Below are positions 9,753-56,296 of a stretch of 57,429 bases of DNA, in pieces. The notes below the pieces were generated by a model. That model was not told the DNA's origin. It did not search any database and worked only from the letters and a program-made list of their open reading frames with translations. The stretch is from assembly GCA_026417175.1 (NCBI GenBank), contig JAOADT010000015.1, positions 1 to 57,429 on the forward strand, given 5' to 3'. This DNA comes from Deltaproteobacteria bacterium. Lineage in GTDB: Bacteria > Desulfobacterota > Syntrophorhabdia > Syntrophorhabdales > JANXAF01. Within the stretch, counting starts at the first letter, position 1; each line of letters begins with the position of its first letter. The position numbers were made by a program, and so were the translations under genes.

Positions 9753-9781
9753 TTAAAATTCTTGGGCTCAAAAGCTATACT
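9753..9781 (+). promoter_or_regulatory. sigma-70 type promoter for the AmmeMemoRadiSam operon
   Basis: TTAAAA (9753-9758), 17-base spacer, TATACT (9776-9781), ending 7 bases before the ATG at 9789. No Shine-Dalgarno is present, so a leaderless transcript is predicted. Confidence 0.45.
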
Positions 9782-9788
9782 ATTATGC

Positions 9789-12011
9789 ATGCCCCTCTTC
9801 TTCGTACCAATCTTTGTACTTGGCTTTTCCGGGATCGCGGCCCATGTTGTGCTTCTTAGAGAATTGATTGTTCTTTTCTCAGGAAATGAACTCTCCATAG
9901 GTTTAATAATAGGTGTATGGATTCTGGGAGAGGCTTTAGGAGCCTTCTCTTTATCTTCTGTAAAGTCGACTTCGGTGAATTTTAACCTTTTTTCTACATC
10001 TACCATCCTTTTTTCCTTTCTCTTCCCATTTGGTCTATATACTCTAAGTGAAGGAAGAAACCTATTCTCCCTTCCGCAGGGAGTTCAAATGAACATAATT
10101 CAGATGGGAACTATTACCGTGATTTCCACATTTCCTTCCTCTTTTTTGCATGGGTTCCTTTTTAATTTAGCCTTTTCTTTAGCTCGGCTATCACAGGACG
10201 AAGAAAGAAATACAGTTGGCCAAGTGTACTTTTATGAGATGCTAGGAACAGCGGTAGGAGGCGCTTCCTTAACATACTTTTTTATCCCAAATTTTGATGT
10301 GTATTGGATCGCAAATTTGGTGGGATTTGTCTCGAACACATCTATTCTTTTGACTTACGCATCACGAAAAAAAAGTTCTTTATTATTATGTGCTTTTTTT
10401 TCAGGTCTTTTTCTTTTCCTTTTAGTATCGGGAGCTAATAAAAAGCTTGTTCAGTTCTCATTAAAGAGAATTTGGGGTGAAAAGGAAATAATTTTTTCCG
10501 AAAACTCTATGTATCAGAATTTAACAGTTATAAAAAATGACTCAGAGTATACTGTTTACACCGATGGTCTTCCGTATACAACAGTGCCTAATCCTGACAC
10601 ATTTTACATTGAAGAGGTTGCACATCTTCCACTCCTTTTTCATCCCATGCCAAAACAAGTCCTCCTTTTGAGTGTACCACCGGAGGTGGCCAAGGAAGTG
10701 ATAAAGTATCCTTCTATTGAGAGGATCGATTATGTTGAGATGGATCCAAGACTTCTTCAAATCGTTGAAGCTGTCAGCAAAAAAGGGGAAGAAGAAAGAA
10801 AAGTGAAAATCTATTTTGAAGACGGAAGGCATTTTGTTAAGAAGGCAAAACATAAATACGATGTAATAATCTTAGGCATCAAGTCTCCTAATACCTTACA
10901 GACTAACAGGTTCTTCACTTTCGAATTCTTTGAAGACGTAAAAAACATCCTGAATGAGGGTGGTTTATACTTTTTTTCCCTTCCAGGGTCTAATTATTAC
11001 ACTCAAGAGCTAAGGATGTTAAATACGTCCGTTTTTATTGCGGCAAAAGAAACTTTCAACTTCGTTTATGTCCTCCCAGGAAGTCCAAATTTTTTTATTC
11101 TAACAGATTCCAGAGTCGATATGTCAGCGGATATCCTCTATGAAAAGCTCTCAAACCATGGGGTTAGTGCGAATCTAATAAGTAAGGCACATCTTGACTA
11201 TAAGCTGGATAATAGAAAAAGAGAATGGTTTTTAATGCAATTGGAAGAAAAAACGGAGAGAAAAAACACGGATTTTACCCCTTTCGCCTTTTTTTTCAGT
11301 ATTGCTTACGAGAATCTTAAAATCTCGCCAGTTACTCTTTCGTTTTTTAGGAACATTTACAACCTTAAGATAGAACATCTGTTTTTGCTTGTCCTTTTTA
11401 CCCTTCTCCTCTTAGTTCTAGTGGGAGCAAAAAAAGGTAGATCTGTAACTCTAACATTTTCTGTATTTACTACAGGATTAACCATGACGATGACGGAGGT
11501 TATATTCCTTTTTGCGTATCAGACAATTTATGGATATGTTCTTTACGCGCTTGGCATTTTACTTTCAGCTTTTATGACCGGATGTGCTGGAGGTAGCATA
11601 GCCGGGGCAAGAATAGAAAAAAGATTCAGATCTTTTGAGGGTCTAGTAGTCTTTGAAATAGCAGCCACTATTTTTCTTCTAGTGATTCTTTTTAATGCTA
11701 CCATCTTTAAAGAAATGGACCCGCAATCCATAAAACTACACACCCTTTTTTTGGCACTCCTTTTTATTTCCGGTTTCTTTATAGGGGCAGAATTCACCTT
11801 AGGTGTCTCTTCCTACTTAGATGTGAATCGTGTTGATCAAAGAAAAGGCATAGGTGTAATCTTTGCTTCTGATCTAATAGGTGGCTTTTTTGGCGCCCTT
11901 GCTGGAAGTTTTATTATCTTTCCCATTCTTGGTCTTAAGGAAACTCTTGTAATTATTTTTGTGCTTAAGCTTTCTTCTTTATCTCTTTTCCTTTTAATTC
12001 CAAAAAAGTGA
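9789..12011 (+). CDS. polytopic membrane protein with spermidine-synthase-like domain
   Basis: A 740-aa protein with three parts: N-terminal membrane helices (about 1-220), a soluble spermidine-synthase/methyltransferase-like domain (about 225-480) and a C-terminal set of membrane helices (from about 525). The middle part has the family features IDYVEMDPRLLQIV and EDGRHFV...YDVIIL. However, the glycine-rich nucleotide loop is replaced by LLLSVPPEVAKEV, so binding of decarboxylated SAM or SAM is doubtful. ATG at 9789 is chosen; a TTG at 9762 in the same frame is the alternative. It heads the operon and is 29 bases from the radical SAM gene, so a shared role is likely. Substrate unknown. Confidence 0.8.
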   Translation: MPLFFVPIFVLGFSGIAAHVVLLRELIVLFSGNELSIGLIIGVWILGEALGAFSLSSVKSTSVNFNLFSTSTILFSFLFPFGLYTLSEGRNLFSLPQGVQMNIIQMGTITVISTFPSSFLHGFLFNLAFSLARLSQDEERNTVGQVYFYEMLGTAVGGASLTYFFIPNFDVYWIANLVGFVSNTSILLTYASRKKSSLLLCAFFSGLFLFLLVSGANKKLVQFSLKRIWGEKEIIFSENSMYQNLTVIKNDSEYTVYTDGLPYTTVPNPDTFYIEEVAHLPLLFHPMPKQVLLLSVPPEVAKEVIKYPSIERIDYVEMDPRLLQIVEAVSKKGEEERKVKIYFEDGRHFVKKAKHKYDVIILGIKSPNTLQTNRFFTFEFFEDVKNILNEGGLYFFSLPGSNYYTQELRMLNTSVFIAAKETFNFVYVLPGSPNFFILTDSRVDMSADILYEKLSNHGVSANLISKAHLDYKLDNRKREWFLMQLEEKTERKNTDFTPFAFFFSIAYENLKISPVTLSFFRNIYNLKIEHLFLLVLFTLLLLVLVGAKKGRSVTLTFSVFTTGLTMTMTEVIFLFAYQTIYGYVLYALGILLSAFMTGCAGGSIAGARIEKRFRSFEGLVVFEIAATIFLLVILFNATIFKEMDPQSIKLHTLFLALLFISGFFIGAEFTLGVSSYLDVNRVDQRKGIGVIFASDLIGGFFGALAGSFIIFPILGLKETLVIIFVLKLSSLSLFLLIPKK

Positions 12012-12040
12012 TATATTAATTAAAAGGGGGTTATTCCTTC

Positions 12041-13141
12041 ATGCTTTCTCGAAGGAACTTTTTAAAGCTCGCACTGTTTACACCTTTTCTTCTTGCCAAG
12101 ACAAGAGACACTGAAAAATCACTCTATAAAGAAGCTTTGTACTACTTTAGAATCCAGAATAAGAAAAACCAGGTAGAATGTCAACTTTGCCCGAGGGGCT
12201 GTCTTTTAGGGGATGGAGATCTCGGCTTCTGCCGGGCCCGAAAAAATATAAATGGTAGACTTTATGCTTTAGGCTACGGAGCACCCTGTGCCGTCCATGT
12301 GGATCCCATTGAAAAAAAACCTTTTTTTCATGTGATTCCCCAAAGTGCGTCCCTTTCAATAGCTTCTGCTGGTTGCAACTTAAGGTGCAAGTTCTGTCAA
12401 AACTGGCAAATCTCACAGGTTTCACCGATGGAGACGGTAAATTATGAGTTGCCTCCGCGTAAAGTTGTGGATATGGCAAAAAAAATGAAATGCAAAAGCA
12501 TAGCGTATACTTACACAGAGCCTACTAATTTTTACGAATACATGCTGGATACCGCAAGAATCGCAAAAAAAGAAGGGATTCTTAATGTTTCTCACACAAA
12601 CGGATACATAAATAGAAAACCTCTTGAAGAGCTCTCAAGTTTAATTGATGCGGTAAACGTGGATCTCAAAGGCTTTGACGACGCGTTTTATGCCAAACTG
12701 TGCGAGGCGAATTTAAAACCCGTATTAGATACGTTAAAAATACTAAAAACCAAAGGAGTATGGATTGAGATTACGAATCTAGTAATACCTGGATACAACG
12801 ATCGGGAAGAGACTATTCGCGAGATGTGCATATGGATTAAAGAGAATCTCGGAGAGGATGTTCCTTTGCATTTCACAAGATTCTTTCCCATGTATCTTAT
12901 GAACTCTCTGTCTCCCACACCTGTTTCGACCCTGGAAAAAGCAAGAGAAATAGCAATTTCGGTGGGTCTTTCTTATGTCTATTTAGGCAACGTGCCAGGG
13001 CATTTAGGTGAAAATACGTACTGTAAGAGATGCAAAAGAGCCGTTCTGAAAAGATCAGGATTTAACCTTCTTGAGAACAACCTAAAGGATGGTAGATGCA
13101 AGTTTTGTGGGCAAGAAATAAAGGGTATATGGAAGGCTTAA
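12041..13141 (+). CDS. AmmeMemoRadiSam system radical SAM protein with Tat signal
   Basis: A 366-aa radical SAM enzyme whose 4Fe-4S motif is C112-x3-C116-x2-C119 (CNLRCKFCQNW). Extra cysteine clusters lie before it (CQLCPRGC...C) and at the C-terminus (CKRC...CKFC, zinc-ribbon-like). It resembles PflA-like activases of the AmmeMemoRadiSam group, found with MEMO and AMMECR1 proteins. The N-terminus SRRNFLKLALFTPFLL is a textbook twin-arginine signal, implying a folded, cluster-loaded enzyme outside the cytoplasm or anchored in the membrane. The next gene starts 4 bases after its stop. The reaction and target are not known. Confidence 0.9.
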   Translation: MLSRRNFLKLALFTPFLLAKTRDTEKSLYKEALYYFRIQNKKNQVECQLCPRGCLLGDGDLGFCRARKNINGRLYALGYGAPCAVHVDPIEKKPFFHVIPQSASLSIASAGCNLRCKFCQNWQISQVSPMETVNYELPPRKVVDMAKKMKCKSIAYTYTEPTNFYEYMLDTARIAKKEGILNVSHTNGYINRKPLEELSSLIDAVNVDLKGFDDAFYAKLCEANLKPVLDTLKILKTKGVWIEITNLVIPGYNDREETIREMCIWIKENLGEDVPLHFTRFFPMYLMNSLSPTPVSTLEKAREIAISVGLSYVYLGNVPGHLGENTYCKRCKRAVLKRSGFNLLENNLKDGRCKFCGQEIKGIWKA

Positions 13142-13145
13142 AAAA

Positions 13146-14585
13146 GTGATTTTTGTATTTCTTCTATTCTTTTTCCTTTCAAACCCAAACGCCCTGGGTC
13201 AAGATGTAAAAAGGCCAAATGTGGCCGGTCTTTTTTATCCCAAAGAAAGAAAAGCTCTGGAAGAAATGATTGAAAATCTTCTGATGCAGGCGGGTAACAA
13301 AAAGACCAAAGGAAAAATAATCGGACTTATATCACCTCATGCGGGATATGAATACTCCGGAAATGTGGCTGCTTACGGATTTACCGAAATACGGGGGCTA
13401 CCATACAAAACGGTTTTCATATTCGGACCGAGCCATCACTTTCCTCTAAAAGGTGCATCCATTATTCCATCAGGTTTTTTTGAGACCCCGCTTGGGAGAG
13501 TAGAAATAGACGTCCAGTTTGCAAAAAGAATCATGGAGCGTTGCAAATTTGTAAAACATATACCCCTCGCTTTTGAAAAAGAACATTCTTTAGAAGTCCA
13601 GATCCCATTTTTGCAGAGGACACTTAAAGATTTCAGAATCGTTCCCATTGTCATGGGTGATATGACCTTAGAAGAACATATGCTTATCGCGAGTGTCTTA
13701 GACGACATTTATGAAAAAAACGAAGGTCAGGTCCTTTCCATTTTTTCTACTGATCTCTCACATTTTCACTCGTGTGAAACAGCAAGAAGGATAGATACCG
13801 AAACCGTAAATTTAATAGAGAAATCTGACATTAGAGCTCTTATCGAGGGTTTAAGATCCGGAAAAGTGGAGATGTGTGGGTTTCATCCCGTAATACTTTC
13901 TCTTATCCTTTCCGATATGAGAATTTGTGAAATAGTACCTTTAAAATATGGCACTTCGGCAGATTCAGGGGGGCCTAAAGACCGTGTTGTGGGGTATCTT
14001 TCCGCATCTATCACCGAACCAGCAGAAAAACCAGAACTCACATGGAGTGAGAAAAAACTCCTCCTCAAGATAGCCAGAACTACACTTACCGAGTATGTGA
14101 AAAAGAGAAATAGACCCAAATTTAACGTAAAGGAGGCGAGGCTAAACGAGAAAGAGCCTGTTTTCGTCACGCTAACAAAAAAGGGGGAGCTAAGAGGATG
14201 TATGGGTCACACAAAGCCCTTATTTCCCCTTTTTCAAGCGGTATGCGAGATGACCATAAATGCCTCCTGCTACGACCCCAGATTCAATCCTGTCTTGGAG
14301 GAAGAGCTGAAAGATATAGAAATAGAAATATCTGTCCTCGGTCCGTTTAAAAGACTTAGAAATCCTGAGGAAATAGAAATAGGTAAGCACGGATTGTGTA
14401 CAGTTATTGGAAATCATAGGGGACTTTTACTTCCGCAGGTTGCACAAAAATTCAAGTGGGAAAAAACGGAGTTTCTGAGACAAACGTGTTTAAAAGCAGG
14501 CTTAGAGCCTAATGCATACCTTCACAAGGAAGCTAAAGTGTATTTTTTTAAAGCCTATTCCTTCTCTGAGGGTAACTTAAGATGA
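13146..14585 (+). CDS. MEMO-AMMECR1 fusion protein, exported
   Basis: A 479-aa protein with two known domains in one chain. Residues about 20-275 are a MEMO1-like domain (RPNVAGLFYPKE, SPHAGYEYSG, FGPSHHFPLKG, STDLSHFHS). Its His/Asp set resembles extradiol dioxygenases and LigB-type enzymes. Residues about 300-479 are AMMECR1 (FVTLTKKGELRGCMGH, then YDPRFNPV). The first ~19 residues are hydrophobic and end in NALGQ, a likely signal peptide. The start is GTG, 4 bases after the radical SAM gene. With its neighbours it forms an AmmeMemoRadiSam module, probably in the periplasm. Biochemical role unknown. Confidence 0.9.
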   Translation: MIFVFLLFFFLSNPNALGQDVKRPNVAGLFYPKERKALEEMIENLLMQAGNKKTKGKIIGLISPHAGYEYSGNVAAYGFTEIRGLPYKTVFIFGPSHHFPLKGASIIPSGFFETPLGRVEIDVQFAKRIMERCKFVKHIPLAFEKEHSLEVQIPFLQRTLKDFRIVPIVMGDMTLEEHMLIASVLDDIYEKNEGQVLSIFSTDLSHFHSCETARRIDTETVNLIEKSDIRALIEGLRSGKVEMCGFHPVILSLILSDMRICEIVPLKYGTSADSGGPKDRVVGYLSASITEPAEKPELTWSEKKLLLKIARTTLTEYVKKRNRPKFNVKEARLNEKEPVFVTLTKKGELRGCMGHTKPLFPLFQAVCEMTINASCYDPRFNPVLEEELKDIEIEISVLGPFKRLRNPEEIEIGKHGLCTVIGNHRGLLLPQVAQKFKWEKTEFLRQTCLKAGLEPNAYLHKEAKVYFFKAYSFSEGNLR

Positions 14586-16093
14586 ATTTAAAGGAAATTT
14601 TGGAAAAATACAGAGATTCCGTGATTGACAAATGGATCGCGAAACTGAAAAGTGAAGTAAGTGAAAGGTATAGTAAAAGACCTATAGAGGAGCTCTTCAT
14701 AACTGTAAGTGCGGCCTACGATGCCAGTACGTATGTGCTTCTATTTGATGATTATTCAAAGATAGATTGCCACATAGAGTGGATCACAAGAGCGAGGCTT
14801 CATGGTGGTTTCACTCTCTCTGAAGTTCAGCACGCATACGAGTTTGTGAGAGAGCTTCTTGTACCAGTATTTCTTAAAAATTTGAAAGGTCCAGAGCTTG
14901 AAGATGCCCTCATTAAACTAAACAAATGCACCTTTTACACCATAACCCAGTTTAGTAAGAACTTTCAATCCTTACATGAAAGTAAAATAAAGGAACATGC
15001 TCAGAATTTGGAAAGGATTGTTGAGGAAAGAACAAGGGAATTAGTAGAATCCGAATCAAAATATAGAACACTTGTTGAAGACATAAACGACGGATACTTT
15101 GTAAATCAAGACGGTTTAATAGTCTTTGCAAATAAGGCTTATTGTGAGATGCACGGTTATCACCCTTCAGAGGTCATAGGAAGACCTTACCACGATTTTA
15201 TAGCTTCCGAACATCTGGATTTTGTGAAGAGCTTATACGAAGAGAGAATAAACAAAGGAGAGGCGCCCGAGCTATACGTTTATTTAAGAAAGCATAAAAA
15301 CGGTAAATGTTTTCCAACAGAAAATAAGGTCAAAATCATAGAATACAACGGACGCAGGGCAGTGGCAGGTATATGTAGAGATATCACTGAAAGGGTTGAG
15401 ATGGAAAGAAAGATAAGGGAGACAGAAAATCTAGCTCATATTGGAAGACTTACGACCTCTTTAGCACACGAAATAAGAAACCCTTTGTCGTCAGTAAAAC
15501 TAAACGTACAAATTCTTAAAAAGAATCCCAAAATAGATGGAAACGATAGAAGACGAATCGAAATAGTGGCTAATGAGATTACTAGACTAGAACGCATTCT
15601 TACAGAAATGCTAGACTTCGCTAGACCCATAAGACTGAAACTTGAAGAGGCGGACCTGAACCAGATAGTTGAGTCTAGCATAGATGTAGTGGAAGTGAAG
15701 GTAAAAGAAAAAGGGCTAATCATAAAGAAAAAATACTCAAAAAACCTCCCTATCCTTTATCTTGATAAGGACATGATTGAACAGGCAGTGATAAACATAC
15801 TATTGAATTCGATAGACGTACTTGACAGGGGAGGCAAAATAACAGTCCAAACCAGGATGGCAGATGAGAATGGTTCGGTAGCCCTCGACATCTACGATAA
15901 TGGCCCGGGTATAGAAAAAGATGTTCTTCCTTTTATATTCGACCCTTTTTTCAGTAACAAAAAGAAAGGAACTGGGCTTGGCCTTTTTAACGTCAAAAGG
16001 ATTATAGACGCACACGGTGGAAAAGTGGAAGCTCACCCTGGGAAAAAAAATGGGGTACACTTCTCCATATTACTTCCACGTGAGGGATTGTGA
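14582..16093 (+). CDS. PAS-domain sensor histidine kinase
   Basis: A 503-aa soluble kinase with no membrane segments. Order: RsbRD-like N-terminal helical domain (about 1-135, VIDKWIAKL and HGGFTLSEVQHAYEFVREL), a coiled linker, one PAS domain (about 155-270), a HisKA domain with phospho-acceptor His296 (SLAHEIRNP), and an ATPase domain with NILLNSIDVLD, DNGPGI and GTGLGLFNVKRI. It is therefore likely to sense a cytoplasmic signal. It overlaps the preceding gene by 4 bases (ATGA) and the next regulator gene by one base, so kinase and regulator form a co-translated pair. Confidence 0.93.
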   Translation: MNLKEILEKYRDSVIDKWIAKLKSEVSERYSKRPIEELFITVSAAYDASTYVLLFDDYSKIDCHIEWITRARLHGGFTLSEVQHAYEFVRELLVPVFLKNLKGPELEDALIKLNKCTFYTITQFSKNFQSLHESKIKEHAQNLERIVEERTRELVESESKYRTLVEDINDGYFVNQDGLIVFANKAYCEMHGYHPSEVIGRPYHDFIASEHLDFVKSLYEERINKGEAPELYVYLRKHKNGKCFPTENKVKIIEYNGRRAVAGICRDITERVEMERKIRETENLAHIGRLTTSLAHEIRNPLSSVKLNVQILKKNPKIDGNDRRRIEIVANEITRLERILTEMLDFARPIRLKLEEADLNQIVESSIDVVEVKVKEKGLIIKKKYSKNLPILYLDKDMIEQAVINILLNSIDVLDRGGKITVQTRMADENGSVALDIYDNGPGIEKDVLPFIFDPFFSNKKKGTGLGLFNVKRIIDAHGGKVEAHPGKKNGVHFSILLPREGL

Positions 16094-17469
16094 TGAAAAA
16101 TACGATACTCATAATAGACGACGAAGAACCTATACTAGAATCTCTCGAGATGTATTTCAGTGAGAAAGGATTTAACGTTATATGTGCCAAAACCGCAGAA
16201 GAAGGTATGCATAAAACTCTATTATTCGATCCGGATCTTATCATTCTCGATGTAAGACTACCCGATCAGGATGGGCTGGAATTGATAAAAAGACTAAAAG
16301 AAAAAAAGAAGGATACTCAAGTCATAATAATAACCGCTTTTCATGACATGGAGACGACCATTAAAGCGGTCAAAAGAGGCGCCTACGAATACATTCCAAA
16401 ACCTCTAGATATAGAAGAACTTGACTCTGCTGTATGTAAGGCCCTAAAGGCAGAAGAAAAAGTCAAAGAAAAAAATGGCCTAATCATTGAGAATCCCTCA
16501 ACTCATGAGCGAGGTAAACTCATAGGTAAAAGCAAAGCTATGAAGGAGATATTTAAAGCTATAGGTATCCTCTCAGAAAACAGAGTTACGGTACTTATAG
16601 AAGGTGAGACGGGTACAGGGAAAGAACTCATAGCGCAGGCTATCCATTACAACAGTCCATTTAGAGATCATCCATTCATTCCTATTAACTGTTCTGCAAT
16701 AGTGGGAACGCTTCTTGAAAGTGAACTTTTCGGTCATGAGAAAGGGTCGTTCACAGGTGCCCATTCCACAAAAAGGGGAAAGTTTGAGCTCGCCGGAGAC
16801 GGCACAATATTTCTGGATGAGGTAAGCGAGATACCTTACGAATTACAGGCAAAGCTTTTAAGATTCTTACAAGAAAAGGAATTCGAAAGAGTTGGAGGAG
16901 AAAAAACTTTAAAGTCCAACGCCAGAGTAATAGCTGCAACTAATAAAAGTCTCTCCCAACTTGTAAGGGAAGGAAAATTTAGAGAGGATCTCTATTATCG
17001 GCTATCTGTAGCGAAGATTGAAGTGCCCCCTCTAAGAAAAAGAAAATCAGATATACCTTTGCTTGTTGAATATCTCATAGGCAGAATAAACTGCGAATTG
17101 AAGAGGAATATAAGAAAGGTAGAGGAGCGGGCAATTCAAAGAATGATGGAGTATGATTGGCCCGGAAATGTCAGAGAATTGGAGAATGTTTTAACGAGAA
17201 TAGCAATTGAGCTGAGAGAAGAAATAATAACAGAAGAGCATATTATTCCCCTGCTTGAGGGTAAAGGAACGGATCAAAAAGGCAGTGTCGTGGGACATCT
17301 TCTGAGTCTATCCGCCGTTGAAAAAGAACATATAAGAAGGGTCTTAGAATATACCGGATGGCATTTCGGCAAAGCATGCCAGATTCTTGGGATATCCAGA
17401 CCCTCCCTTAGAAAAAAAATAAGGGAATATAATCTACAGAAGGAAAAAAATAATCTGTTGGCATTCTGA
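16093..17469 (+). CDS. NtrC-family sigma-54-dependent response regulator
   Basis: A 458-aa protein with a receiver domain (Asp53 in ILDVRLPD), an AAA+ sigma-54 activation domain (Walker A GETGTGKE; GSFTGA loop at about 218-223, an accepted variant of GAFTGA; Walker B GTIFLDE) and a C-terminal Fis-type helix-turn-helix (VEKEHIRRVLEYTGWHFGKA). ATG at 16093 overlaps the kinase stop by one base; a GTG one codon earlier is also possible. It is expected to remodel sigma-54 RNA polymerase at -24/-12 promoters. The strongest such promoter visible is 240 bases downstream, before the Liv-type operon. Confidence 0.94.
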   Translation: MKNTILIIDDEEPILESLEMYFSEKGFNVICAKTAEEGMHKTLLFDPDLIILDVRLPDQDGLELIKRLKEKKKDTQVIIITAFHDMETTIKAVKRGAYEYIPKPLDIEELDSAVCKALKAEEKVKEKNGLIIENPSTHERGKLIGKSKAMKEIFKAIGILSENRVTVLIEGETGTGKELIAQAIHYNSPFRDHPFIPINCSAIVGTLLESELFGHEKGSFTGAHSTKRGKFELAGDGTIFLDEVSEIPYELQAKLLRFLQEKEFERVGGEKTLKSNARVIAATNKSLSQLVREGKFREDLYYRLSVAKIEVPPLRKRKSDIPLLVEYLIGRINCELKRNIRKVEERAIQRMMEYDWPGNVRELENVLTRIAIELREEIITEEHIIPLLEGKGTDQKGSVVGHLLSLSAVEKEHIRRVLEYTGWHFGKACQILGISRPSLRKKIREYNLQKEKNNLLAF

Positions 17470-17483
17470 TTGCAAGTCGCAAT
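17458..17483 (+). promoter_or_regulatory. sigma-54-like -24/-12 element overlapping a palindrome
   Basis: TTGGCAT followed by TTGCA gives GG (17460-17461), 10 bases, GC (17472-17473), the spacing required by sigma-54. The same bases contain the inverted repeat ATTGC-N5-GCAAT (17469-17483). It may be a second sigma-54 promoter, an activator-binding site about 230 bases upstream of the transporter promoter, or both. It spans the regulator stop codon. Confidence 0.45.
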
Positions 17484-17487
17484 TGGT

Positions 17488-17652
17488 ATGAAAACGCTAA
17501 AAGAGATAAAAAGAGAGCACATTATGACCGTTTTGAAGAGTACAGGATGGGATATAAAAGAAGCCAGTAAGATACTCAAGGTGAAAGAGACCTATCTAAA
17601 GAGAGAGATAGAAAAGATGAAAAAAGAGATGAAAGTATCTTTCAAAGATTGA
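17488..17652 (+). CDS. 54-aa Fis-type helix-turn-helix protein
   Basis: The product is almost only a Fis/NtrC-type DNA-binding domain: LKEIKREHIMTVLKSTGW, then EASKILKV and LKREIEKMKKE. It aligns with the C-terminal domain of the adjacent response regulator (KEHIRRVLEYTGWHFGKACQIL), sharing EHI, VL, TGW, A and IL at matching positions. ATG at 17488 is chosen because a later ATG would cut the domain; TTG at 17470 is possible. No clear Shine-Dalgarno. I infer it binds the same sites as the regulator, competing or co-binding without a receiver or AAA+ domain. Confidence 0.7.
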   Translation: MKTLKEIKREHIMTVLKSTGWDIKEASKILKVKETYLKREIEKMKKEMKVSFKD

Positions 17653-17707
17653 AAGATTCTTTTAATCAGCACAAACTGTCACTTAAGACTGACCATTGAT
17701 ATCTATC

Positions 17708-17723
17708 TGGCACATAACTTGCT
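17708..17723 (+). promoter_or_regulatory. sigma-54 promoter of the Liv-type transporter operon
   Basis: TGGCAC, 5 bases, TTGCT: a full match to the conserved core of the -24/-12 consensus, with GG (17709-17710) and GC (17721-17722) 10 bases apart. Predicted start is about 17733, giving a ~20-base leader with a GGGGGG ribosome-binding site before the ATG at 17755. Confidence 0.85.
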
Positions 17724-17754
17724 TTTGGTTAGATTAAAAAATTGGGGGGTTATC

Positions 17755-19014
17755 ATGAGAAGGCTTATCGGATCGTTACTTATAATCTCTTTTCTCTTTT
17801 TTACGGGAAGTTACTCTTATTCAGCTGAGAAACCAATAACTATTGGTGCCCCACTTGCTACTGCTTTTCTCTATGGATGGGTAGCTGAAAGAGGAATAAA
17901 GCTCGCAGTTGAAGAGATCAACGCAAAGGGTGGTGTAAACGTCGCTGGAAAGAAAAGATCTTTCAAGGTAGAGGTGATTGATACAAGGGATCTGGAACCA
18001 GGGGTACCAGTGAGCGAAGCACTTCTTGCAGTTGAAAAACTTATTCTTGAAAAAAAAGCTGACTTTCTTATTGGTGGACCTGTTAGGTCAGAAGCAGCAC
18101 TTGCGGCAATGGATATTGTAAGTAAGTATAAAAAGATAAGCATTATCACTACAGGCGTTCTCACACCGCTTCTTACCCAAAAAGTAGTCGAGAACTATGA
18201 CAAGTATAAATACACCTTCAGAAACACAAATCACGTGGGAAATATGATGAAGGAATTCATAACCTTTTTGGACGAGATCCAAAAACCATTCGGTTTTAAA
18301 AGTGCATACATAATGGTTCAGGATGTTGAACACGCACGAAGAGGTGGGGAAGTCATGAAAAAAGCTCTCTCTGAGAAAGGTTGGGAAGTAATTGATATGA
18401 AAATATATCCCACAGGGACAACTGATTACTCTGTGGGACTCGCCGATGCTAAAAACAAAGGCGCAGACATACTCTTCCTATGGATGGATATGCCTGAAAG
18501 TGCCATTCTACTTAAACAGTGGTCCGATTTAAAAATGAAAGCTTTACCGATAGGCTTCGTTTGCGCTGCAGAACAACCGGGATTTTGGAAAGCCACAGGT
18601 GGTAAAGGTGAATATCTTATAGTAAACGTCGTAAATGGAGGAAATGCTCCTGGTAATATAACTCCGTGGACTATAAAGTTTGTAGACGCATACAAAAAAC
18701 GTTGGGGACTCGAACCTGAGGGCTATGGAACATCCTCTAGTTATATGGCCGTCTATCAGCTAAAAGAAGCTATCGAAAAAGCAGGCTCTATAGATTCTGA
18801 AAAAGTGGTTACTGCCCTTGAGGATCTGGACATGGTGGGTGTTTATGGTAGGATGAAATTTGATAACAAATCACATCAGATAATACCTTCATTTAATCCT
18901 AAAGAAGGCGCGGTTACATGCATATTCCAATGGCAGGCCGGAAACAGAGTCCAGGTTTTTCCTTCGACAGTGGCACAAGGAAAAGTGATGCTTCCCCCGT
19001 GGGTAAAAAGGTAA
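17755..19014 (+). CDS. ABC transporter substrate-binding protein, LivJ/LivK type
   Basis: A 419-aa periplasmic binding protein. The N-terminal signal peptide has two Arg, a hydrophobic core and a YSAE cleavage region, followed by ITIGAPLATAF...GIKLAVEEINAKGGV, the typical start of the type I periplasmic fold. ATG at 17755 follows GGGGGG; an upstream in-frame start at 17719 lies inside the sigma-54 promoter and is rejected. Members of this family carry branched-chain amino acids but also aromatic acids, amides and urea. The linked CoA ligase favours a carboxylic acid substrate, as inference. Confidence 0.9.
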   Translation: MRRLIGSLLIISFLFFTGSYSYSAEKPITIGAPLATAFLYGWVAERGIKLAVEEINAKGGVNVAGKKRSFKVEVIDTRDLEPGVPVSEALLAVEKLILEKKADFLIGGPVRSEAALAAMDIVSKYKKISIITTGVLTPLLTQKVVENYDKYKYTFRNTNHVGNMMKEFITFLDEIQKPFGFKSAYIMVQDVEHARRGGEVMKKALSEKGWEVIDMKIYPTGTTDYSVGLADAKNKGADILFLWMDMPESAILLKQWSDLKMKALPIGFVCAAEQPGFWKATGGKGEYLIVNVVNGGNAPGNITPWTIKFVDAYKKRWGLEPEGYGTSSSYMAVYQLKEAIEKAGSIDSEKVVTALEDLDMVGVYGRMKFDNKSHQIIPSFNPKEGAVTCIFQWQAGNRVQVFPSTVAQGKVMLPPWVKR

Positions 19015-19023
19015 GGAATTAAA

Positions 19024-19893
19024 ATGCACATACTAGTGTACGGTGTTATAAACAGTATCACTCTTTCACTTATATCCCTTGGGTTTGCACTTGTTTACAG
19101 TATAAGTAGGGTCCCAAACTTCGCTCATGGGGCCTTATACATTACGACGGGATACATAGTCTGGCTGTTCATAAATAAAATCACAGGGTTCCCTTATCTT
19201 TTGGCAATAATTCTGGGAATTTCCATAAGCGGAATAATAGGTGCGCTCATTTACAGACTCATTCTTATTAGGATAAGAGGTATGGAAATATCAGAGATCA
19301 TAGCTACATACGCCATTGGTGTAGCTATACTAGAAGGCCTAAGATGGGGAGGACTAAGAGGAATGACATTCACTCTCCCTGTTTTCATTTCTGGATCAAC
19401 AGAGATCCTAGGTGTTACTGTTGACTTCCAAAGAATAGTTGTTGTCGTGTGTGGTGCTCTTACTTTTCTATTCTTATATTTTTTTACCCACCACACCAGG
19501 GTAGGCCTAGCTCTAAGAGGTATCGCTCAGGACGAAAGAGCGGCCATGATGTTAGGAATAGATTCGGATTTAACCGCTATACTTTCTCTTGCCATAGGCT
19601 CTGCTTTAGCTGGGTTTGCAGCTCTACTTCTCTTGCCCCTAGGAAACATAATTGTTGAGGCTGGATATAGCGTTCTTATTTTTGCGGTTGCCGTATGTGT
19701 TATTGGGGGACTGGGAAGTCTTTTGGGAACCGTTATAGCTTCATTCATAATAGGCTTCGCACAGATACTTACTGATAAGTACCTCTCAACTCATTATCAG
19801 ATGGTTGTAGCCCTTTTAGCAATTATAATCACCCTTATAGTTAAACCGTCAGGACTATTTGGTAAGCAAAAGGAACTAGAGGAGCGGGTTTAA
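19024..19893 (+). CDS. livH: Liv-type ABC transporter permease, LivH family
   Basis: A 289-aa inner-membrane protein with about eight hydrophobic segments and the LivH start (GVINSITLSLISLGFALVYS, RVPNFAHGALY). The loop GLALRGIAQDERAAMMLGI contacts the ATPase and is conserved in the family. It lies 9 bases after the binding protein and 1 base before livM; AAGGA precedes the ATG. It should form the channel with LivM. Confidence 0.93.
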   Translation: MHILVYGVINSITLSLISLGFALVYSISRVPNFAHGALYITTGYIVWLFINKITGFPYLLAIILGISISGIIGALIYRLILIRIRGMEISEIIATYAIGVAILEGLRWGGLRGMTFTLPVFISGSTEILGVTVDFQRIVVVVCGALTFLFLYFFTHHTRVGLALRGIAQDERAAMMLGIDSDLTAILSLAIGSALAGFAALLLLPLGNIIVEAGYSVLIFAVAVCVIGGLGSLLGTVIASFIIGFAQILTDKYLSTHYQMVVALLAIIITLIVKPSGLFGKQKELEERV

Positions 19894-19894
19894 A

Positions 19895-20905
19895 ATGGAA
19901 CAGTTAAGAAGGGAAAGGCTTGACAGAAGTTTAAAGGTGAGAACAGAAGGTATTTACGCCATTTCGGCTTTTGAGGAAATACTCTATCTTTTGGGTCCAA
20001 GGCTCCTATTTATCGTCGGAATTTTAATTCTTCCTTTCATCCTTGAGGCTGCACCTTACTGGAAGCGCGTAATAAACATCATGTGTGCATATGCCATAAT
20101 CGCTATAAGCTTTGATTTTCTCTCGAATTTTGTTGGACTTGTCTGTTTGGGAGGCGCGCTTTTCACCGGAATTGGAGGTTACTTCACAGCCATATATAAC
20201 CACTATTTCTCTTTTCCGATGTATCTCTCTATTCCTTTGGCTGCAGTAAGCGGGGCTCTTTTCTGCACAGTTGTGCTTTTGCCTGCCCTTCCACTACGGG
20301 GTGTTTACTTTGCGATTGTTACCCTCATGTATCCTCTCCTATTCTCTAGGATTATTGAAGCGCTTAACATACTGGGCGGAACGAATGGGATTTCAGGAAT
20401 CCAGAGTTTTCCCAATCCTTACATTGAACATTATACGGTTATTCTAATATTACTTTTCTTTCTCTTTGGCCTTCGAAGATTTGTCAATGAAGATATTGGG
20501 CTCGTTTTCAGGGGGGTAAAGGATAACGATCAAGCGGTGAAGGCCTCAGGCATAAATGTAACTACAATAAAAATTTACGCTGTTTTTATAGCTTCCCTCA
20601 TGGGATGCTTCTCTGGTGCCTACATTGCTCACCTTTACATGTGGGCTGGTCTTTCCCTTTTTGCTCTAGATTTTTCAATAATACCGATCGCTTCAACTGT
20701 TATAGGCGGTGGTGGAACTTTAATCGGAGCAGTAATAGGAAGTTTTATCCTAGTTCCACTTTCTGAGATTTTGAGAGAAGCAGGTACCCTGAGAATAGTG
20801 ATTTATTGCGTAGTCCTCACCCTATTTATCGTGTTCAAGAGTGAAGGTCTTATGATCTACTTACAGCGGAAATACCATCAGTTTGAAAGGTGGGTAAAGG
20901 TATGA
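19895..20905 (+). CDS. livM: Liv-type ABC transporter permease, LivM family
   Basis: A 336-aa inner-membrane permease. After a ~35-residue charged N-terminus it has about eight to ten hydrophobic segments, with LPLRGVYFAIVTL, GGTNGI and the coupling-loop RGVKDNDQAVKASGIN typical of LivM. The stop overlaps the livG ATG (ATGA). Partner of LivH. Confidence 0.93.
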   Translation: MEQLRRERLDRSLKVRTEGIYAISAFEEILYLLGPRLLFIVGILILPFILEAAPYWKRVINIMCAYAIIAISFDFLSNFVGLVCLGGALFTGIGGYFTAIYNHYFSFPMYLSIPLAAVSGALFCTVVLLPALPLRGVYFAIVTLMYPLLFSRIIEALNILGGTNGISGIQSFPNPYIEHYTVILILLFFLFGLRRFVNEDIGLVFRGVKDNDQAVKASGINVTTIKIYAVFIASLMGCFSGAYIAHLYMWAGLSLFALDFSIIPIASTVIGGGGTLIGAVIGSFILVPLSEILREAGTLRIVIYCVVLTLFIVFKSEGLMIYLQRKYHQFERWVKV

Positions 20906-21669
20906 AGGAAGAGATAATTCTTTCTGTAAGTAATCTCTCCAAATCGTTTGGAGGTTTAAAGGCCCTAATCGATGTGAGCTTTCAAGTGAAAAGGGGGGAG
21001 ATATTTGGGATAATAGGTCCCAATGGATCGGGAAAAACAACACTCATCAACTGTATCACAGGTTTCATAAAACCAGATTCAGGAAAAGTACATTTCAAGG
21101 ACAGGGATATAACTGGTTTTAAGCCCCATAAAATAGCTCATATGGGTATAGCTAGGACATTTCAGATAATGAGACCTTATTACTCACTTCCTGCATACAA
21201 GAATCTAATTGTTCCCCTCTGGTCTCCCAGAGCCAAGAAACTAGGAGGATGGAGAGGGGGAGGAAAACACGGAGATAGAGATACCGTAGCTGTTGACATC
21301 CTTGAAGAAATCGGCTTTGAAAGGGACTCAAGGGTTCCTTACAAACTTGCCTCTACCCTCCCCACAGGTTATCAAAAGAGGTTAGAACTTGCCAGATGCA
21401 TAGCCCTGAGACCGGAAGTGATATTTTGTGATGAGGTGTTTTCAGGTCTAAGCATGAGTGAGATAGCAGGAATGATACCTCTAATAGAAAAGATGAAGAT
21501 GGAGGGCATAACTCTTATAATGGTTGAACACAGACTCAGAGAGTTATTCCGAGTCGCTGATCGAGTCATGGCATTGAATTTTGGAGAAAAGATCGCAGAA
21601 GGAGATCCGCATGAGGTAATCGAGGATAAAAGGGTCAAGGAGGCATACCTTGGAAGTGAAGGAATCTAA
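20902..21669 (+). CDS. livG: Liv-type ABC transporter ATPase, LivG family
   Basis: A 255-aa ABC ATPase with Walker A GPNGSGKTT and Walker B VIFCDEVFSGL, then the LivG-type end VMALNFGEKIAEGDPHEV. The ABC signature is unusual: LPTGYQKRLELA rather than the common LSYGQQRRLEIA. The ATG at 20902 overlaps the livM stop; a GTG at 20890 would give four more residues. It energises LivHM together with LivF. Confidence 0.92.
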   Translation: MKEEIILSVSNLSKSFGGLKALIDVSFQVKRGEIFGIIGPNGSGKTTLINCITGFIKPDSGKVHFKDRDITGFKPHKIAHMGIARTFQIMRPYYSLPAYKNLIVPLWSPRAKKLGGWRGGGKHGDRDTVAVDILEEIGFERDSRVPYKLASTLPTGYQKRLELARCIALRPEVIFCDEVFSGLSMSEIAGMIPLIEKMKMEGITLIMVEHRLRELFRVADRVMALNFGEKIAEGDPHEVIEDKRVKEAYLGSEGI

Positions 21670-22420
21670 TAGGAGAGTCTTAGAAGCGAAGGAACTTATG
21701 GTTTTTTATGAAAATATGCTTGCACTAAACAACGTTACTCTTCACTGTGAAGAAGAAAGTATTCTGGGAGTTTTCGGATCGAACAGCGCAGGAAAAAGTA
21801 CTCTCATGTATACACTATCTGGCATAATTCTTGATATCAAATACAAAGAGGAGATGAAAGGTGGGGAAAGGATATCGGTTTTTGGCAAAATAACCTTTGA
21901 GGGGAAAGATATTACCTCCTTAAAACCCCATGAAAGAGCGAGACTTGGCATCATTTTGTGTCCAGAAAGAAGAAGAATCTTTCCAGAAAGTTCTGTTCTC
22001 GAAAATCTGTTCATAGGGTCGTATCTCGCAAGAAAGGAAAGAGAAGAAAACCTTGAATACGTACTTAATCTCTTTCCCAGACTCAAAGATCATTTAAAAA
22101 GACAAGGGGGTTTCTTAAGTGGCGGCGAGCAGCAGATGCTGGCAATAGGAAGAGCGCTTATGGCAAATCCCAAAATGCTTCTTCTTGATGAGCCACTACT
22201 GGGCTTGAGTCCAGCGTACCAAGAAATTGTGATAACAGGTATTAAGCAGATTAGAGACACGAGAAAGATAACTATAATAGTGACAGAACAGTACGCAAGG
22301 CCCGTATTACCGATTATCGATTATGGATATATTTTAGAAAACGGTTCTAGTGTTCTCTCGGGGACAAAAGAAGAACTATTAGACAATCCGGATGTAAAGT
22401 CGGCGTATTTCGGTGTTTAG
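21650..22420 (+). CDS. livF: Liv-type ABC transporter ATPase, LivF family
   Basis: A 256-aa ABC ATPase with Walker A GSNSAGKST, signature LSGGEQQMLAIGRALM, and Walker B LLLDEPLLGLSP. A TTG start at 21650 is chosen because AAGGAGG sits 6 bases upstream; the gene then overlaps livG by 20 bases. A short insertion (MKGGERISVFGK) follows the Walker A region. Second ATPase subunit of the transporter. Confidence 0.92.
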   Translation: MEVKESNRRVLEAKELMVFYENMLALNNVTLHCEEESILGVFGSNSAGKSTLMYTLSGIILDIKYKEEMKGGERISVFGKITFEGKDITSLKPHERARLGIILCPERRRIFPESSVLENLFIGSYLARKEREENLEYVLNLFPRLKDHLKRQGGFLSGGEQQMLAIGRALMANPKMLLLDEPLLGLSPAYQEIVITGIKQIRDTRKITIIVTEQYARPVLPIIDYGYILENGSSVLSGTKEELLDNPDVKSAYFGV

Positions 22421-22430
22421 GGGGCAAAAA

Positions 22431-24080
22431 ATGAGGGAATATACTTTCACCGGATTCGAAGATTCAGCAAAAAAATACCCGTCTAATGTGGCGCTTATTT
22501 ACCTGGGCGAGAAGTTCACATATTATCAGCTTAAAAAGCTCATCGATAAATGCGCCTCGGGACTATTTAAGTTAGGGGTGAAACCCGATGATAGGGTTAT
22601 GCTTTACATCCCTAACACCCCTCAGTGGATAATAGCGAATTATGCCATAAATAAAATAGGTGCATGTGTAGTTCCTGTTTCTCCCATATATACCGCATAT
22701 GAGATTGAATATATGGTTAGGGATGCAGGGATAGAAACAATAATATGTCTAGATACGAATTTTGTCTATGTAAAGGAAGTGATGGAAAGAACACAAATTA
22801 AGAGGGTTCTTGTAACCACATTTGTGGATTTTCTGCCTAGCTGGAAAAAGATCGTAGGCTATTTATTTAACAAAATCCCGAAAGGCAACGTGGAAAAGAG
22901 TGAAAAAGTATATTCCTTAAAGAGGGTAATAATGGATGGGGAAGATGACCCGCCTAAAGTTGCGATAAATCCAGACAGAGATCTAGCCTATATAATGTAC
23001 ACAGGTGGAACAACCGGTTTTCCTAAGGGTGTGCCAGGCAATCATACAGGTGAAGTCTCATACATCCGGGACATTATGGAAGACGTACTCAAAGGCTATG
23101 TGGATGAAGGGAGAGATGTAGTACTCATGGTAAACCCCCTTTTCCACATAATGGCAAAAGGCTTTTGCATAGCTTTCGGCTTCAATTACGGTAACACTGT
23201 TGTCCTCATGCCCCTTCCCGAGGTTGACCCAATTCTGAAAGCGATTGAAAGATATAGAGTTAAATGGATGTTAGGAGTTCCTGCTTTATACAGGATGATA
23301 CTTGAAAATGACAGATTGGACCAGTATGATTTGAGCTCCCTGAAATTCTGTTATTGTGGTGGAGATGTCTTGCCCGTCGAAGTTTTTAGGAAATGGAAGG
23401 AGAGATACGGGATCCCCATCTATCAAGTCTATGGTTCAACAGAAGCGGGACACGTGGCTTACAGTCTCCTAAATAAGGAACCGAAACCAACAGTGGTTGG
23501 ATCTCCGTTGAAATCGAGAAAATGCATTGTAGTTGATAGTGAAACGCTTGATAAATTAAAACCGGGTGAAGTGGGAGAACTCTTAGTAACGTCCCCATAC
23601 ACCATAAAGGAATACCTTAATAAACCTGTAGAGACGAGAAATTCTTATGTGAGTCTAAACGGTGAGGTTTATTACAGAATGGGAGATTACGTTAAGATGA
23701 ACGATGACGGCGAGCTCGAATTTGTGGAAAGAACTGCAGACATAATAAAGTATAAGGGTTATAGGGTGTCTGCCTCTGAAGTGGAAGCGGTATTGCAAGA
23801 CCACCCAACAGTGATAGGGGCCTGTGTAGTTGGTGTACCTGATCATAAGGTAGGTGAGAGAATAAAGGCAATTGTTGTATTGAAAGAAGATGCCAAAGGC
23901 ATAGGAAGTTCAGAACTTATAAAGTGGTGTAGAGAGAGGCTCGCACCGTATAAGGTACCTCAATACATTGAATTCAGGGATATGCTTCCAAAATCTAAAG
24001 TAGGAAAACTGTTACGCAGAGAAATCAGAGACGAGGAAAAAAGGAAGCTGGAAAAAGAGAAACGAAAAAGAAACGGCTAA
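22431..24080 (+). CDS. AMP-forming acyl- or aryl-CoA ligase
   Basis: A 549-aa ANL-superfamily enzyme with the AMP-binding loop YTGGTTGFPKG, YGSTEAGH (A5), YRMGDYVKMNDDGELEF (A7), and catalytic Lys in SKVGKLLRREI near the C-terminus. It activates a carboxylic acid to an acyl-adenylate and then a CoA thioester. It follows livF by 10 bases with AGGGGG before the ATG at 22431. Its place at the end of a Liv-type operon suggests that the imported compound is its substrate (fatty, aromatic or branched acid), which cannot be fixed from sequence. The stop interlocks with the convergent thioesterase. Confidence 0.88.
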   Translation: MREYTFTGFEDSAKKYPSNVALIYLGEKFTYYQLKKLIDKCASGLFKLGVKPDDRVMLYIPNTPQWIIANYAINKIGACVVPVSPIYTAYEIEYMVRDAGIETIICLDTNFVYVKEVMERTQIKRVLVTTFVDFLPSWKKIVGYLFNKIPKGNVEKSEKVYSLKRVIMDGEDDPPKVAINPDRDLAYIMYTGGTTGFPKGVPGNHTGEVSYIRDIMEDVLKGYVDEGRDVVLMVNPLFHIMAKGFCIAFGFNYGNTVVLMPLPEVDPILKAIERYRVKWMLGVPALYRMILENDRLDQYDLSSLKFCYCGGDVLPVEVFRKWKERYGIPIYQVYGSTEAGHVAYSLLNKEPKPTVVGSPLKSRKCIVVDSETLDKLKPGEVGELLVTSPYTIKEYLNKPVETRNSYVSLNGEVYYRMGDYVKMNDDGELEFVERTADIIKYKGYRVSASEVEAVLQDHPTVIGACVVGVPDHKVGERIKAIVVLKEDAKGIGSSELIKWCRERLAPYKVPQYIEFRDMLPKSKVGKLLRREIRDEEKRKLEKEKRKRNG

Positions 24081-27361: not shown

Positions 27362-27640
27362 TTATTTCTGATTCATGGCTTCCTTCAACACCTGGCTCAG
27401 TTTGAAATTGAGGACTCTTCTTTTGGAGATGATCATCTCTTCCCCTGTTTTGGGATTCCTTCCTTTTCTCTCCTTCTTATCCCTTAAAACGAAGTTCCCA
27501 AAACCTGAAATTTTCACATTTTCCCCCCTTGATAGGGCCTCTTTAATTATGTCAAAAAGAGACTCAACGATGTTTGCACATTCCCTTTTTGAGTATCCAA
27601 GTCTTTCGTAAAGATCATTTATTATGTCTGCCTTTGTCAT
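27362..27640 (-). CDS. ihfA: integration host factor subunit alpha
   Basis: A 92-aa HU/IHF-family DNA-bending protein with MTKADIINDLYERLGYSKRE, the GFGNFVLRDK turn and the arm GRNPKTGEEMIISKRRVLNFKLS. Placement just downstream of pheT supports the alpha subunit. IHF commonly bends DNA between activator sites and sigma-54 promoters, which may matter for the transporter operon of this window. It starts 14 bases after pheT. Confidence 0.92.
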   Translation of the reverse strand: MTKADIINDLYERLGYSKRECANIVESLFDIIKEALSRGENVKISGFGNFVLRDKKERKGRNPKTGEEMIISKRRVLNFKLSQVLKEAMNQK

Positions 27641-34097: not shown

Positions 34098-34127
34098 TTG
34101 ATTGCATCTATCTAGAAGAACTAAAAT
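34098..34127 (+). promoter_or_regulatory. possible sigma-70 type promoter for the PEP-CTERM gene at 34153
   Basis: TTGATT (34098-34103), 18 bases, TAAAAT (34122-34127), followed by a strong ribosome-binding site and ATG. No -24/-12 element is visible in this gap. Confidence 0.4.
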
Positions 34128-34152
34128 AATGTCCGAACTTGTGGGAGGAGTT

Positions 34153-34953
34153 ATGGGTAAAAGAAATATTACCACAAAGATCCTTTTGGTATCAGTTTTT
34201 TTTGGTCTTCTATTTCTCCATAAACCAGCTTATGCTTCTTACGCATATGTTTCAGCACTATTCAAATGGGAAAACTTGAATATTTCAGGCAATATCCAAT
34301 GGATAGAAAATGACAATTCCTACCCAAAGCACTCTTATGTCTACGGATATGCAAAAAACGATTCCGGGGAGAGTTGGGATGAAACTCAAAACTATGATTG
34401 GAACCAATTACAGTTAGCAATTTCTATCCCGCAGGCTCGAGCAAAAGCAGAGACAGGTTCCTATATTTCTTCCGAATCAATTGCGGGTCCCCATGGACAG
34501 ATAAGACCATATTCTGAAAGTGTGGTTAGAAAGGAAGGTTATTTTACCTATCTTGAAAGTTCATTAGGAAATCTCACCGTAAGTATTCCTTATAAAGTGC
34601 GGGTCACTCTCTTTGCTTCTTCTGACCCAGGTTCGTATGCACGAGGTGATCTTAAAATGTCTTTTTATCTTAAAAACATAAACACGAGTTATGACACTCA
34701 ATGGTCTTACAATCTCAGTAAGTATGTCAATTCAGGAGGTAGTTTTTCAAAAAACATAGACGACCTCATCACCATGGGCCTTAGATTTGAACCCGGGAAC
34801 ATAGGATCCATATCATTTGAAATTCACACTCAGGCATATGCGGAATCCGTAGTTCCGCTACCTGCGACTTTAACTCTTGTCGCAACGGGTTTGACCGGCA
34901 TCTTTATGTTTGGCAGACGCAGGCTACTTTGGAGTCGTACTTTAGATCACTGA
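34153..34953 (+). CDS. PEP-CTERM-type sorted exported protein
   Basis: A 266-aa protein with an N-terminal signal peptide (KILLVSVFFGLLFL...AYA) and a C-terminal sorting tail: VVPLPATLTLVATGLTGIF followed by GRRR. This is the tripartite PEP-CTERM layout (motif, membrane helix, basic end) in the V-P-L-P form. The mature part is rich in Ser, Tyr and Asn and predicted mostly beta; no known domain is recognised. ATG at 34153 has GGGAGGAG just upstream; an earlier in-frame TTG at 34102 would spoil the signal peptide. It stands apart from the four PEP-CTERM genes at the right end and is not a close paralogue of them. Confidence 0.82.
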   Translation: MGKRNITTKILLVSVFFGLLFLHKPAYASYAYVSALFKWENLNISGNIQWIENDNSYPKHSYVYGYAKNDSGESWDETQNYDWNQLQLAISIPQARAKAETGSYISSESIAGPHGQIRPYSESVVRKEGYFTYLESSLGNLTVSIPYKVRVTLFASSDPGSYARGDLKMSFYLKNINTSYDTQWSYNLSKYVNSGGSFSKNIDDLITMGLRFEPGNIGSISFEIHTQAYAESVVPLPATLTLVATGLTGIFMFGRRRLLWSRTLDH

Positions 34954-56293: not shown

Positions 56294-56296
56294 CAA

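What the first reader, a model, noticed from the sequence alone, without database searches (positions are those of the whole stretch)
17708..17755. Near-perfect sigma-54 promoter driving a Liv-type transporter and CoA ligase
TGGCAC-N5-TTGCT with correct spacing sits about 20 bases upstream of a well-formed leader. With the activator next door this predicts regulated, RpoN-dependent uptake. Upstream DNA holds candidate activator sites, and IHF is encoded in the same window.
Basis: partly seen in the sequence, partly recalled or inferred. Interest (0 to 1): 0.62.

Follow-up and report, generated by a model that had tools for sequence, protein, structure and literature searches.

The report
Sigma-54 transporter operon with hidden mini-regulator
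The predicted switch in front of a nutrient-uptake operon is real and conserved in related bacteria, and beside it lies a second, matching switch that appears to turn on a previously overlooked 54-residue DNA-binding-like protein, probably a feedback regulator of the same operon.

Summary
TGGCACATAACTTGCT (17708-17723) is an exact -24/-12 element with a predicted start at about 17734, 21 nt before livK. It is the window's only perfect match, and it is conserved before livK in 28 of 30 orthologous loci of the order Syntrophorhabdales. The genome encodes RpoN. The neighbouring NtrC-type response regulator has a matching enhancer: two TGAAA-N5-TTTCA palindromes 20 bp apart (17630-17644, 17650-17664). 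This pair is conserved across the phylum and occurs once in this genome.

It lies just before a 54-aa ORF (17488-17652) encoding a free-standing Fis/NtrC-type DNA-binding domain ("mini-Fis"). The ORF is under purifying selection. In Syntrophorhabdales P2 is present exactly where mini-Fis is present. The start codon lies 1-16 nt after the predicted start, so the mRNA looks leaderless. Mini-Fis occurs only where the two-component pair adjoins the operon (29 versus 0 loci). Its recognition helix has degenerated while the regulator's is its most conserved part. I propose a locus-specific feedback microprotein; its sign and mechanism are untested. The IHF link is not supported.

The parts
14582..16093 (+). 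PAS sensor histidine kinase (AtoS/ZraS-like), cytoplasmic in appearance
   Evidence: Pfam HATPase_c, HisKA, PAS; best NCBIfam AtoS/ZraS but below cut-off
16090..17469 (+). NtrC-family response regulator (receiver, sigma-54 AAA+ with GSFTGA, Fis-type HTH), the predicted activator
   Evidence: Pfam Response_reg, Sigma54_activat, HTH_8; sequence
17459..17474 (+). P2: second sigma-54 -24/-12 site TGGCATTCTGATTGCA overlapping the regulator stop codon; predicted start about 17485
   Evidence: 1 mismatch; conserved as TGGCAY/TGGTAT-N5-TTGCA before every Syntrophorhabdales mini-Fis gene, absent where mini-Fis is absent
17488..17652 (+). mini-Fis: 54-aa free-standing Fis/NtrC-type HTH protein, start codon 3 nt after predicted P2 start, no Shine-Dalgarno
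   Evidence: Pfam HTH_8 24.7 bits over cut-off 22; conserved and under purifying selection; model matches NtrC1 DNA-binding domain 4l5e, TM 0.79/0.92, rmsd 0.6
17630..17644 (.). activator site 1, TGAAAGTATCTTTCA, inside the 3' end of mini-Fis
   Evidence: conserved pair 20 bp apart in most loci, none in shuffles; pair unique in genome
17650..17664 (.). activator site 2, TGAAAGATTCTTTTA, beginning at the mini-Fis stop codon
17708..17723 (+). P1: sigma-54 -24/-12 promoter TGGCACATAACTTGCT of the liv operon; predicted start about 17734
   Evidence: conserved in 28 of 30 order-level loci
17744..17749 (+). Shine-Dalgarno (GGGGGG) of livK
   Evidence: G-rich or GGAGG-type site found before livK in 29 of 29 loci checked
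17755..19014 (+). LivK-type substrate-binding protein
   Evidence: Peripla_BP_6
19024..19893 (+). LivH-type permease
   Evidence: BPD_transp_2
19895..20905 (+). LivM-type permease
   Evidence: BPD_transp_2
20890..21669 (+). LivG-type ATPase
   Evidence: ABC_tran, BCA_ABC_TP_C
21650..22420 (+). LivF-type ATPase
   Evidence: ABC_tran; LivF profile
22413..24080 (+). AMP-forming acyl-CoA ligase
   Evidence: AMP-binding and AMP-binding_C; last gene of the conserved operon in most relatives whose contigs reach it

Best explanation
A two-component, sigma-54-dependent locus with a built-in feedback gene. The histidine kinase senses an unknown signal and phosphorylates the NtrC-type regulator. The regulator binds the paired TGAAA-N5-TTTCA enhancer between mini-Fis and livK. 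From this single enhancer it activates P1 (downstream), giving livKHMGF plus CoA ligase, and P2 (upstream, with the enhancer about 150-170 bp inside its transcript), giving mini-Fis from a near-leaderless mRNA. Mini-Fis is the isolated B-C-D helix module of an NtrC-type DNA-binding domain. It most likely modulates the same regulator at this locus as a feedback microprotein, by competing or forming mixed complexes at the enhancer or on the regulator. Shown by computation: the promoters, the enhancer, the coding status and conservation of mini-Fis, and its exclusive link to the regulator. Inferred: phosphorylation, activation of P2 from downstream, and that mini-Fis damps rather than boosts expression.
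For: P1 exact and conserved. P2 present in all 20 Syntrophorhabdales mini-Fis loci and in none of the 9 without mini-Fis that have enough upstream DNA. RpoN present. Enhancer pair with up to 3 mismatches and about 20-bp spacing in 30 of 44 loci, 0 of 440 shuffles; only one good pair in the genome; no enhancer site (up to 1 mismatch) upstream of P2 in the Syntrophorhabdales loci. Mini-Fis dN/dS about 0.05-0.2 in most close pairs, and codon-position differences 8108/4795/11450. Mini-Fis present in 29 loci, all with the regulator adjacent, and in 0 of 37 loci without it. In a phylum search not anchored on livK, the two strongest short-ORF hits outside the order (G145, G233) also sit directly before a livK ortholog. 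Start codon 1-16 nt after predicted start in 22 of 22 Syntrophorhabdales loci. Recognition helix of mini-Fis is its least conserved part (1.38 bits, net charge -2 to +3), while that of the regulator is its most conserved (0.36 bits, +3 to +4).
Against: No transcription, translation or binding data exist here. Isolated sigma-54 activator DNA-binding domains without helix A are monomers in solution (PMC10590331), so an off-DNA heterodimer of mini-Fis with the regulator is not expected from precedent. Mini-Fis is absent from 13 loci that keep the regulator, so it is not essential to the circuit. In Desulfobacterales-type loci the mini-Fis recognition helix stays basic, so there it could still bind DNA. 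In the group L054-L059/L096/L100 the enhancer pair is not recognisable by the motif.
Confidence: 0.55

Rival explanations
1. Mini-Fis is a positive helper: a small Fis-like protein that bends or stabilises the enhancer-promoter loop in place of IHF, raising P1 activity.
For: Fis acts with the sigma-54 activator LuxO at qrr promoters (PMC11407668). No IHF consensus lies between enhancer and promoter. In Desulfobacterales-type loci mini-Fis keeps a basic recognition helix and is the first gene after the promoter.
Against: The Syntrophorhabdales mini-Fis recognition helix has lost conservation and charge. It lacks the helix-A dimerisation element of Fis. Related loci keep P1 and the enhancer without mini-Fis.
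Confidence: 0.2
2. Mini-Fis acts elsewhere: it regulates other genes in trans and merely uses this two-component system for its expression.
For: It has its own promoter in Syntrophorhabdales and its recognition helix differs from the regulator's.
Against: It is never seen without the regulator and liv operon in the loci examined, nor in the two clear extra cases of the phylum-wide search. A trans regulator would be expected to move independently.
Confidence: 0.12
3. The locus is an ordinary single-promoter sigma-54 operon; P2 and mini-Fis are remnants of a duplicated regulator C-terminus with no role.
For: Mini-Fis resembles NtrC-type C-terminal domains and is lost in some relatives.
Against: dN/dS about 0.05-0.2 and third-position excess over a wide phylogenetic range; P2 is kept almost letter for letter in both conserved blocks. 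Remnants would decay.
Confidence: 0.08
4. P1 is not RpoN-dependent in life; the -24/-12 match is fortuitous.
For: No 5'-end or rpoN-mutant data.
Against: A -24/-12 match is conserved at shifting distances in 28 of 30 loci, paired with an activator and its enhancer.
Confidence: 0.03

Closest known systems
Sigma-54 regulons of Desulfobacterota with NtrC-type response regulators (Desulfovibrio vulgaris regulome, PMC4641369)
   Same: Local two-component activator, upstream activator sites, -24/-12 promoter, metabolic and transport targets
   Different: No Liv operon or free-standing Fis-domain gene was found in the passages of that paper that I read; here there are two promoters around one enhancer
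Isolated DNA-binding domains of NtrC1/NifA/NtrC4 (PDB 4l5e, 4fth, 3e7l)
   Same: Three-helix Fis-type fold; mini-Fis model fits NtrC1 domain at rmsd 0.6
   Different: Those are parts of full activators; mini-Fis is a gene of its own without receiver or AAA+ domain
Fis (E. coli, Pseudomonas) with LuxO at qrr promoters
   Same: Small Fis-fold protein acting beside a sigma-54 activator (PMC11407668)
   Different: Fis is a global, dimeric nucleoid protein with an extra N-terminal arm (own knowledge); mini-Fis is about half its size and locus-bound
TrlR, truncated TraR of Agrobacterium (PMC7856919)
   Same: A shortened relative of a regulator, expressed to block that regulator
   Different: TrlR lacks the DNA-binding domain and works by dimerisation; mini-Fis is only the DNA-binding-type domain and its action is untested
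LivKHMGF high-affinity branched-chain amino acid transporter
   Same: Gene content and order
   Different: All subunits score far below the equivalog cut-offs and a CoA ligase is in the operon, suggesting an organic acid substrate (inference)

Membership tests
Sigma-54 (RpoN) promoter | GG at -24, GC at -12, 10 bp between, TGGCAY-N5-TTGCW | tested here: met
   P1 exact, P2 one mismatch; both conserved
Sigma-54 (RpoN) promoter | RpoN encoded in the genome | tested here: met
   PF04552 209.5 bits
Sigma-54 (RpoN) promoter | Enhancer-binding protein with bound upstream sites | tested here: inconclusive
   Adjacent activator and conserved sites found; binding not tested
Sigma-54 (RpoN) promoter | Transcription start lost without RpoN | not testable with these tools
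   needs experiment
NtrC-family response regulator | Receiver, AAA+ with GAFTGA loop, C-terminal Fis HTH | tested here: met
   loop reads GSFTGA, a one-residue variant
Fis-type HTH protein (Pfam HTH_8) | Match above the family cut-off | tested here: met
   mini-Fis 24.7 against 22 bits
Fis nucleoid protein | N-terminal arm and helix A, about 98 aa, dimer | tested here: not met
   54 aa, starts at helix B, three helices
Leaderless mRNA | Start codon at or within a few nt of the transcript 5' end, no Shine-Dalgarno | tested here: inconclusive
   predicted start 1-16 nt before the start codon in 22 of 22 loci; real 5' ends not mapped
High-affinity branched-chain amino acid (Liv) ABC transporter | Equivalog profile cut-offs and amino-acid binding | tested here: not met
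   fold family met, equivalog cut-offs not reached; substrate unknown, only weak solved relatives
TrlR-like dominant-negative regulator | Blocks parent regulator | not testable with these tools
   works-like hypothesis only

The most novel reading that the evidence does not exclude
A previously undescribed class of sigma-54-controlled microprotein: a free-standing NtrC-type DNA-binding domain, translated from a near-leaderless mRNA made at its own sigma-54 promoter, that has shed DNA recognition in one order and now feeds back on its neighbouring activator, with one enhancer serving a promoter on each side.
Probability: 0.3. Interest if true: 0.68.

Novelty: new variant of a known kind. Interest (0 to 1): 0.5.

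Why it matters
The promoter itself is ordinary, though now well supported and placed in a dedicated one-locus regulon conserved through Desulfobacterota, including naphthalene-degrading and syntrophic lineages that are hard to study genetically. The small Fis-type protein gives a testable case of a bacterial activator whose type of DNA-binding module exists as a separate gene in its own circuit. The leaderless sigma-54 transcript and the enhancer shared by two promoters would be unusual regulatory arrangements.

Tried and rejected
(1) IHF looping: gene present, no site with up to 1 mismatch between enhancer and P1; dropped. (2) Mini-Fis fused to the regulator in G002: the two hits in one frame looked like a fusion, but the sequence shows only the regulator's own HTH, and mini-Fis and P2 are absent. 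(3) Fuzzy-regex search for the activator site missed most copies; replaced by an explicit mismatch scan. (4) Wider regulon: only one good enhancer pair in the genome, so no regulon beyond this locus. (5) Off-DNA heterodimer of mini-Fis and regulator as the favoured mechanism: lowered because domains without helix A are monomeric in solution. (6) Substrate from solved relatives: only weak matches. (7) RNA structure in the livK leader: no more than chance. (8) Paper searches for free-standing Fis domains with sigma-54 found nothing relevant; the library is limited, so this is not proof of novelty.

Full report
What was checked. The element TGGCACATAACTTGCT lies at 17708-17723 with the canonical GG/GC spacing. 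It is the only perfect match in the window. In the genome (2.15 Mb, 97 contigs) there are 4 exact matches and 54 with up to one mismatch, against 16 for the reversed control, and one RpoN with about nine sigma-54 activators. The predicted start is about 17734, with a 21-nt leader and a GGGGGG ribosome site before ATG 17755.

Conservation. The binding-protein gene has relatives in 44 of 60 related genomes, most of them close orthologs. After orienting the loci, a TGGCAY-N5-TTGCW-type site precedes livK in 28 of 30 order-level loci, at distances from about 45 to 170 bp. Shuffled 680-bp upstream regions give a hit in 0.7% of cases. Named relatives place the genome in the order Syntrophorhabdales, with more distant orthologs in Syntrophaceae, Desulfobacterales, strain NaphS2 and others. 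The operon livKHMGF plus CoA ligase is conserved in most of them.

Enhancer. Upstream of P1 sit two palindromes TGAAA-N5-TTTCA exactly 20 bp apart (17630-17644 and 17650-17664). A pair with at most 3 mismatches in 20 positions is found in 30 of 44 loci and in 0 of 440 shuffles, mostly centred about 77-167 bp upstream of the start. The pair occurs once in the genome; the only other match, at 3 mismatches, is at the level of the control. The neighbouring response regulator therefore looks dedicated to this locus.

The second promoter and the hidden gene. A second -24/-12 site, P2 (TGGCATTCTGATTGCA, 17459-17474), overlaps the regulator's stop codon. It precedes an ORF of 54 codons (17488-17652) that scores above the Pfam cut-off for the Fis-type HTH domain; it is the only intact free-standing copy in the genome. 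Iterated profile search found 29 distinct mini-Fis proteins. They are coding: dN/dS is about 0.05-0.2 for most close pairs and changes pile up at third positions (8108/4795/11450). In the 30 order-level loci, P2 is present in all 20 with mini-Fis and in none of the 9 without it for which upstream DNA is held. The window protein models as three helices (mean pLDDT 82.7), closest to the NtrC1 DNA-binding domain.

Leaderless arrangement. With the start placed 12 nt after the -12 element, the mini-Fis start codon is 1-16 nt into the transcript in 22 of 22 Syntrophorhabdales loci (3 nt in the window). None has a convincing Shine-Dalgarno, whereas livK has one in all loci checked (most of the 'SD' flags before mini-Fis are the weak word GTGA). 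In Desulfobacterales-type loci the order is enhancer, one sigma-54 promoter, mini-Fis with a 21-97 nt leader, then livK.

Link to the regulator. Among 79 distinct loci with enough upstream sequence, mini-Fis is present in 29 of 42 with the two-component pair adjacent and in 0 of 37 without it (the p-value of 9e-12 ignores shared ancestry). A phylum search not based on livK found two short-ORF copies in other families (G145, G233), both directly before a livK ortholog.

What mini-Fis may do. In Syntrophorhabdales the regulator's recognition helix is its most conserved part (0.36 bits, charge +3 to +4), while that of mini-Fis is its least conserved part (1.38 bits, charge mostly -2 to +2). Helices 1 and 2 of the two are equally conserved. 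Mini-Fis has therefore probably lost or changed DNA recognition there while keeping its core. Because the regulator-bound enhancer lies downstream of P2 and upstream of P1, and no other enhancer site lies upstream of P2, the simplest circuit is one enhancer serving both promoters, with mini-Fis feeding back on the regulator. Loss of mini-Fis in relatives that keep regulator, enhancer and P1 argues for a modulator rather than a required activator. Domains of this kind without helix A are monomers off DNA (PMC10590331), so action at the enhancer is more likely than sequestration in solution. The Fis-LuxO precedent (PMC11407668) keeps a helper role open.

Limits. Everything is computed; no transcript, protein or binding data were available. 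Start sites are predicted from promoter spacing. The transporter substrate is unknown: all subunits fall below the branched-chain amino acid equivalog cut-offs and solved relatives are weak; the CoA ligase suggests an organic acid (inference). Novelty of mini-Fis rests on failed paper searches in a partial library.

Noticed in passing
17650-17664 and equivalent places in L035, L036, L037, L055-L059, L096, L100: An activator-site copy begins exactly at the mini-Fis stop codon (TGA-AAG or TAA-AAG), so gene end and enhancer overlap in many species.
   Followed up: partly
L004, about 36-210 bases after the match at 1501-1516: An exact sigma-54 site precedes a predicted small membrane protein (about 57 aa, MNHAIIEIATVVTG...) followed by what looks like a LysE-type exporter.
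   Followed up: no
L018, match at 1501-1516: A sigma-54-like site 21 nt before a small secreted Spy/ZraP-like protein, about 3 kb from a sigma-54 activator on the same contig (C11): probably a ZraSR-type metal or envelope stress unit.
   Followed up: no
G000:C24:2195-3037 (L070, L164): A sigma-54 activator fragment whose Fis-type HTH is interrupted by an in-frame TAG; possible pseudogene.
   Followed up: no
window 9762-14585: Spermidine-synthase-like membrane protein, AmmeMemoRadiSam-type radical SAM enzyme and a Memo-AMMECR1 fusion just upstream of the two-component pair.
   Followed up: partly
window 27362-27640 (-): IHF-alpha gene between pheT and a MerR-type regulator; common arrangement, no sign of a special link to the liv promoter.
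   Followed up: yes
window 34102-34953 and 54867-57355: Several small secreted proteins ending in PEP-CTERM-like sorting tails near an exopolysaccharide cluster.
   Followed up: no
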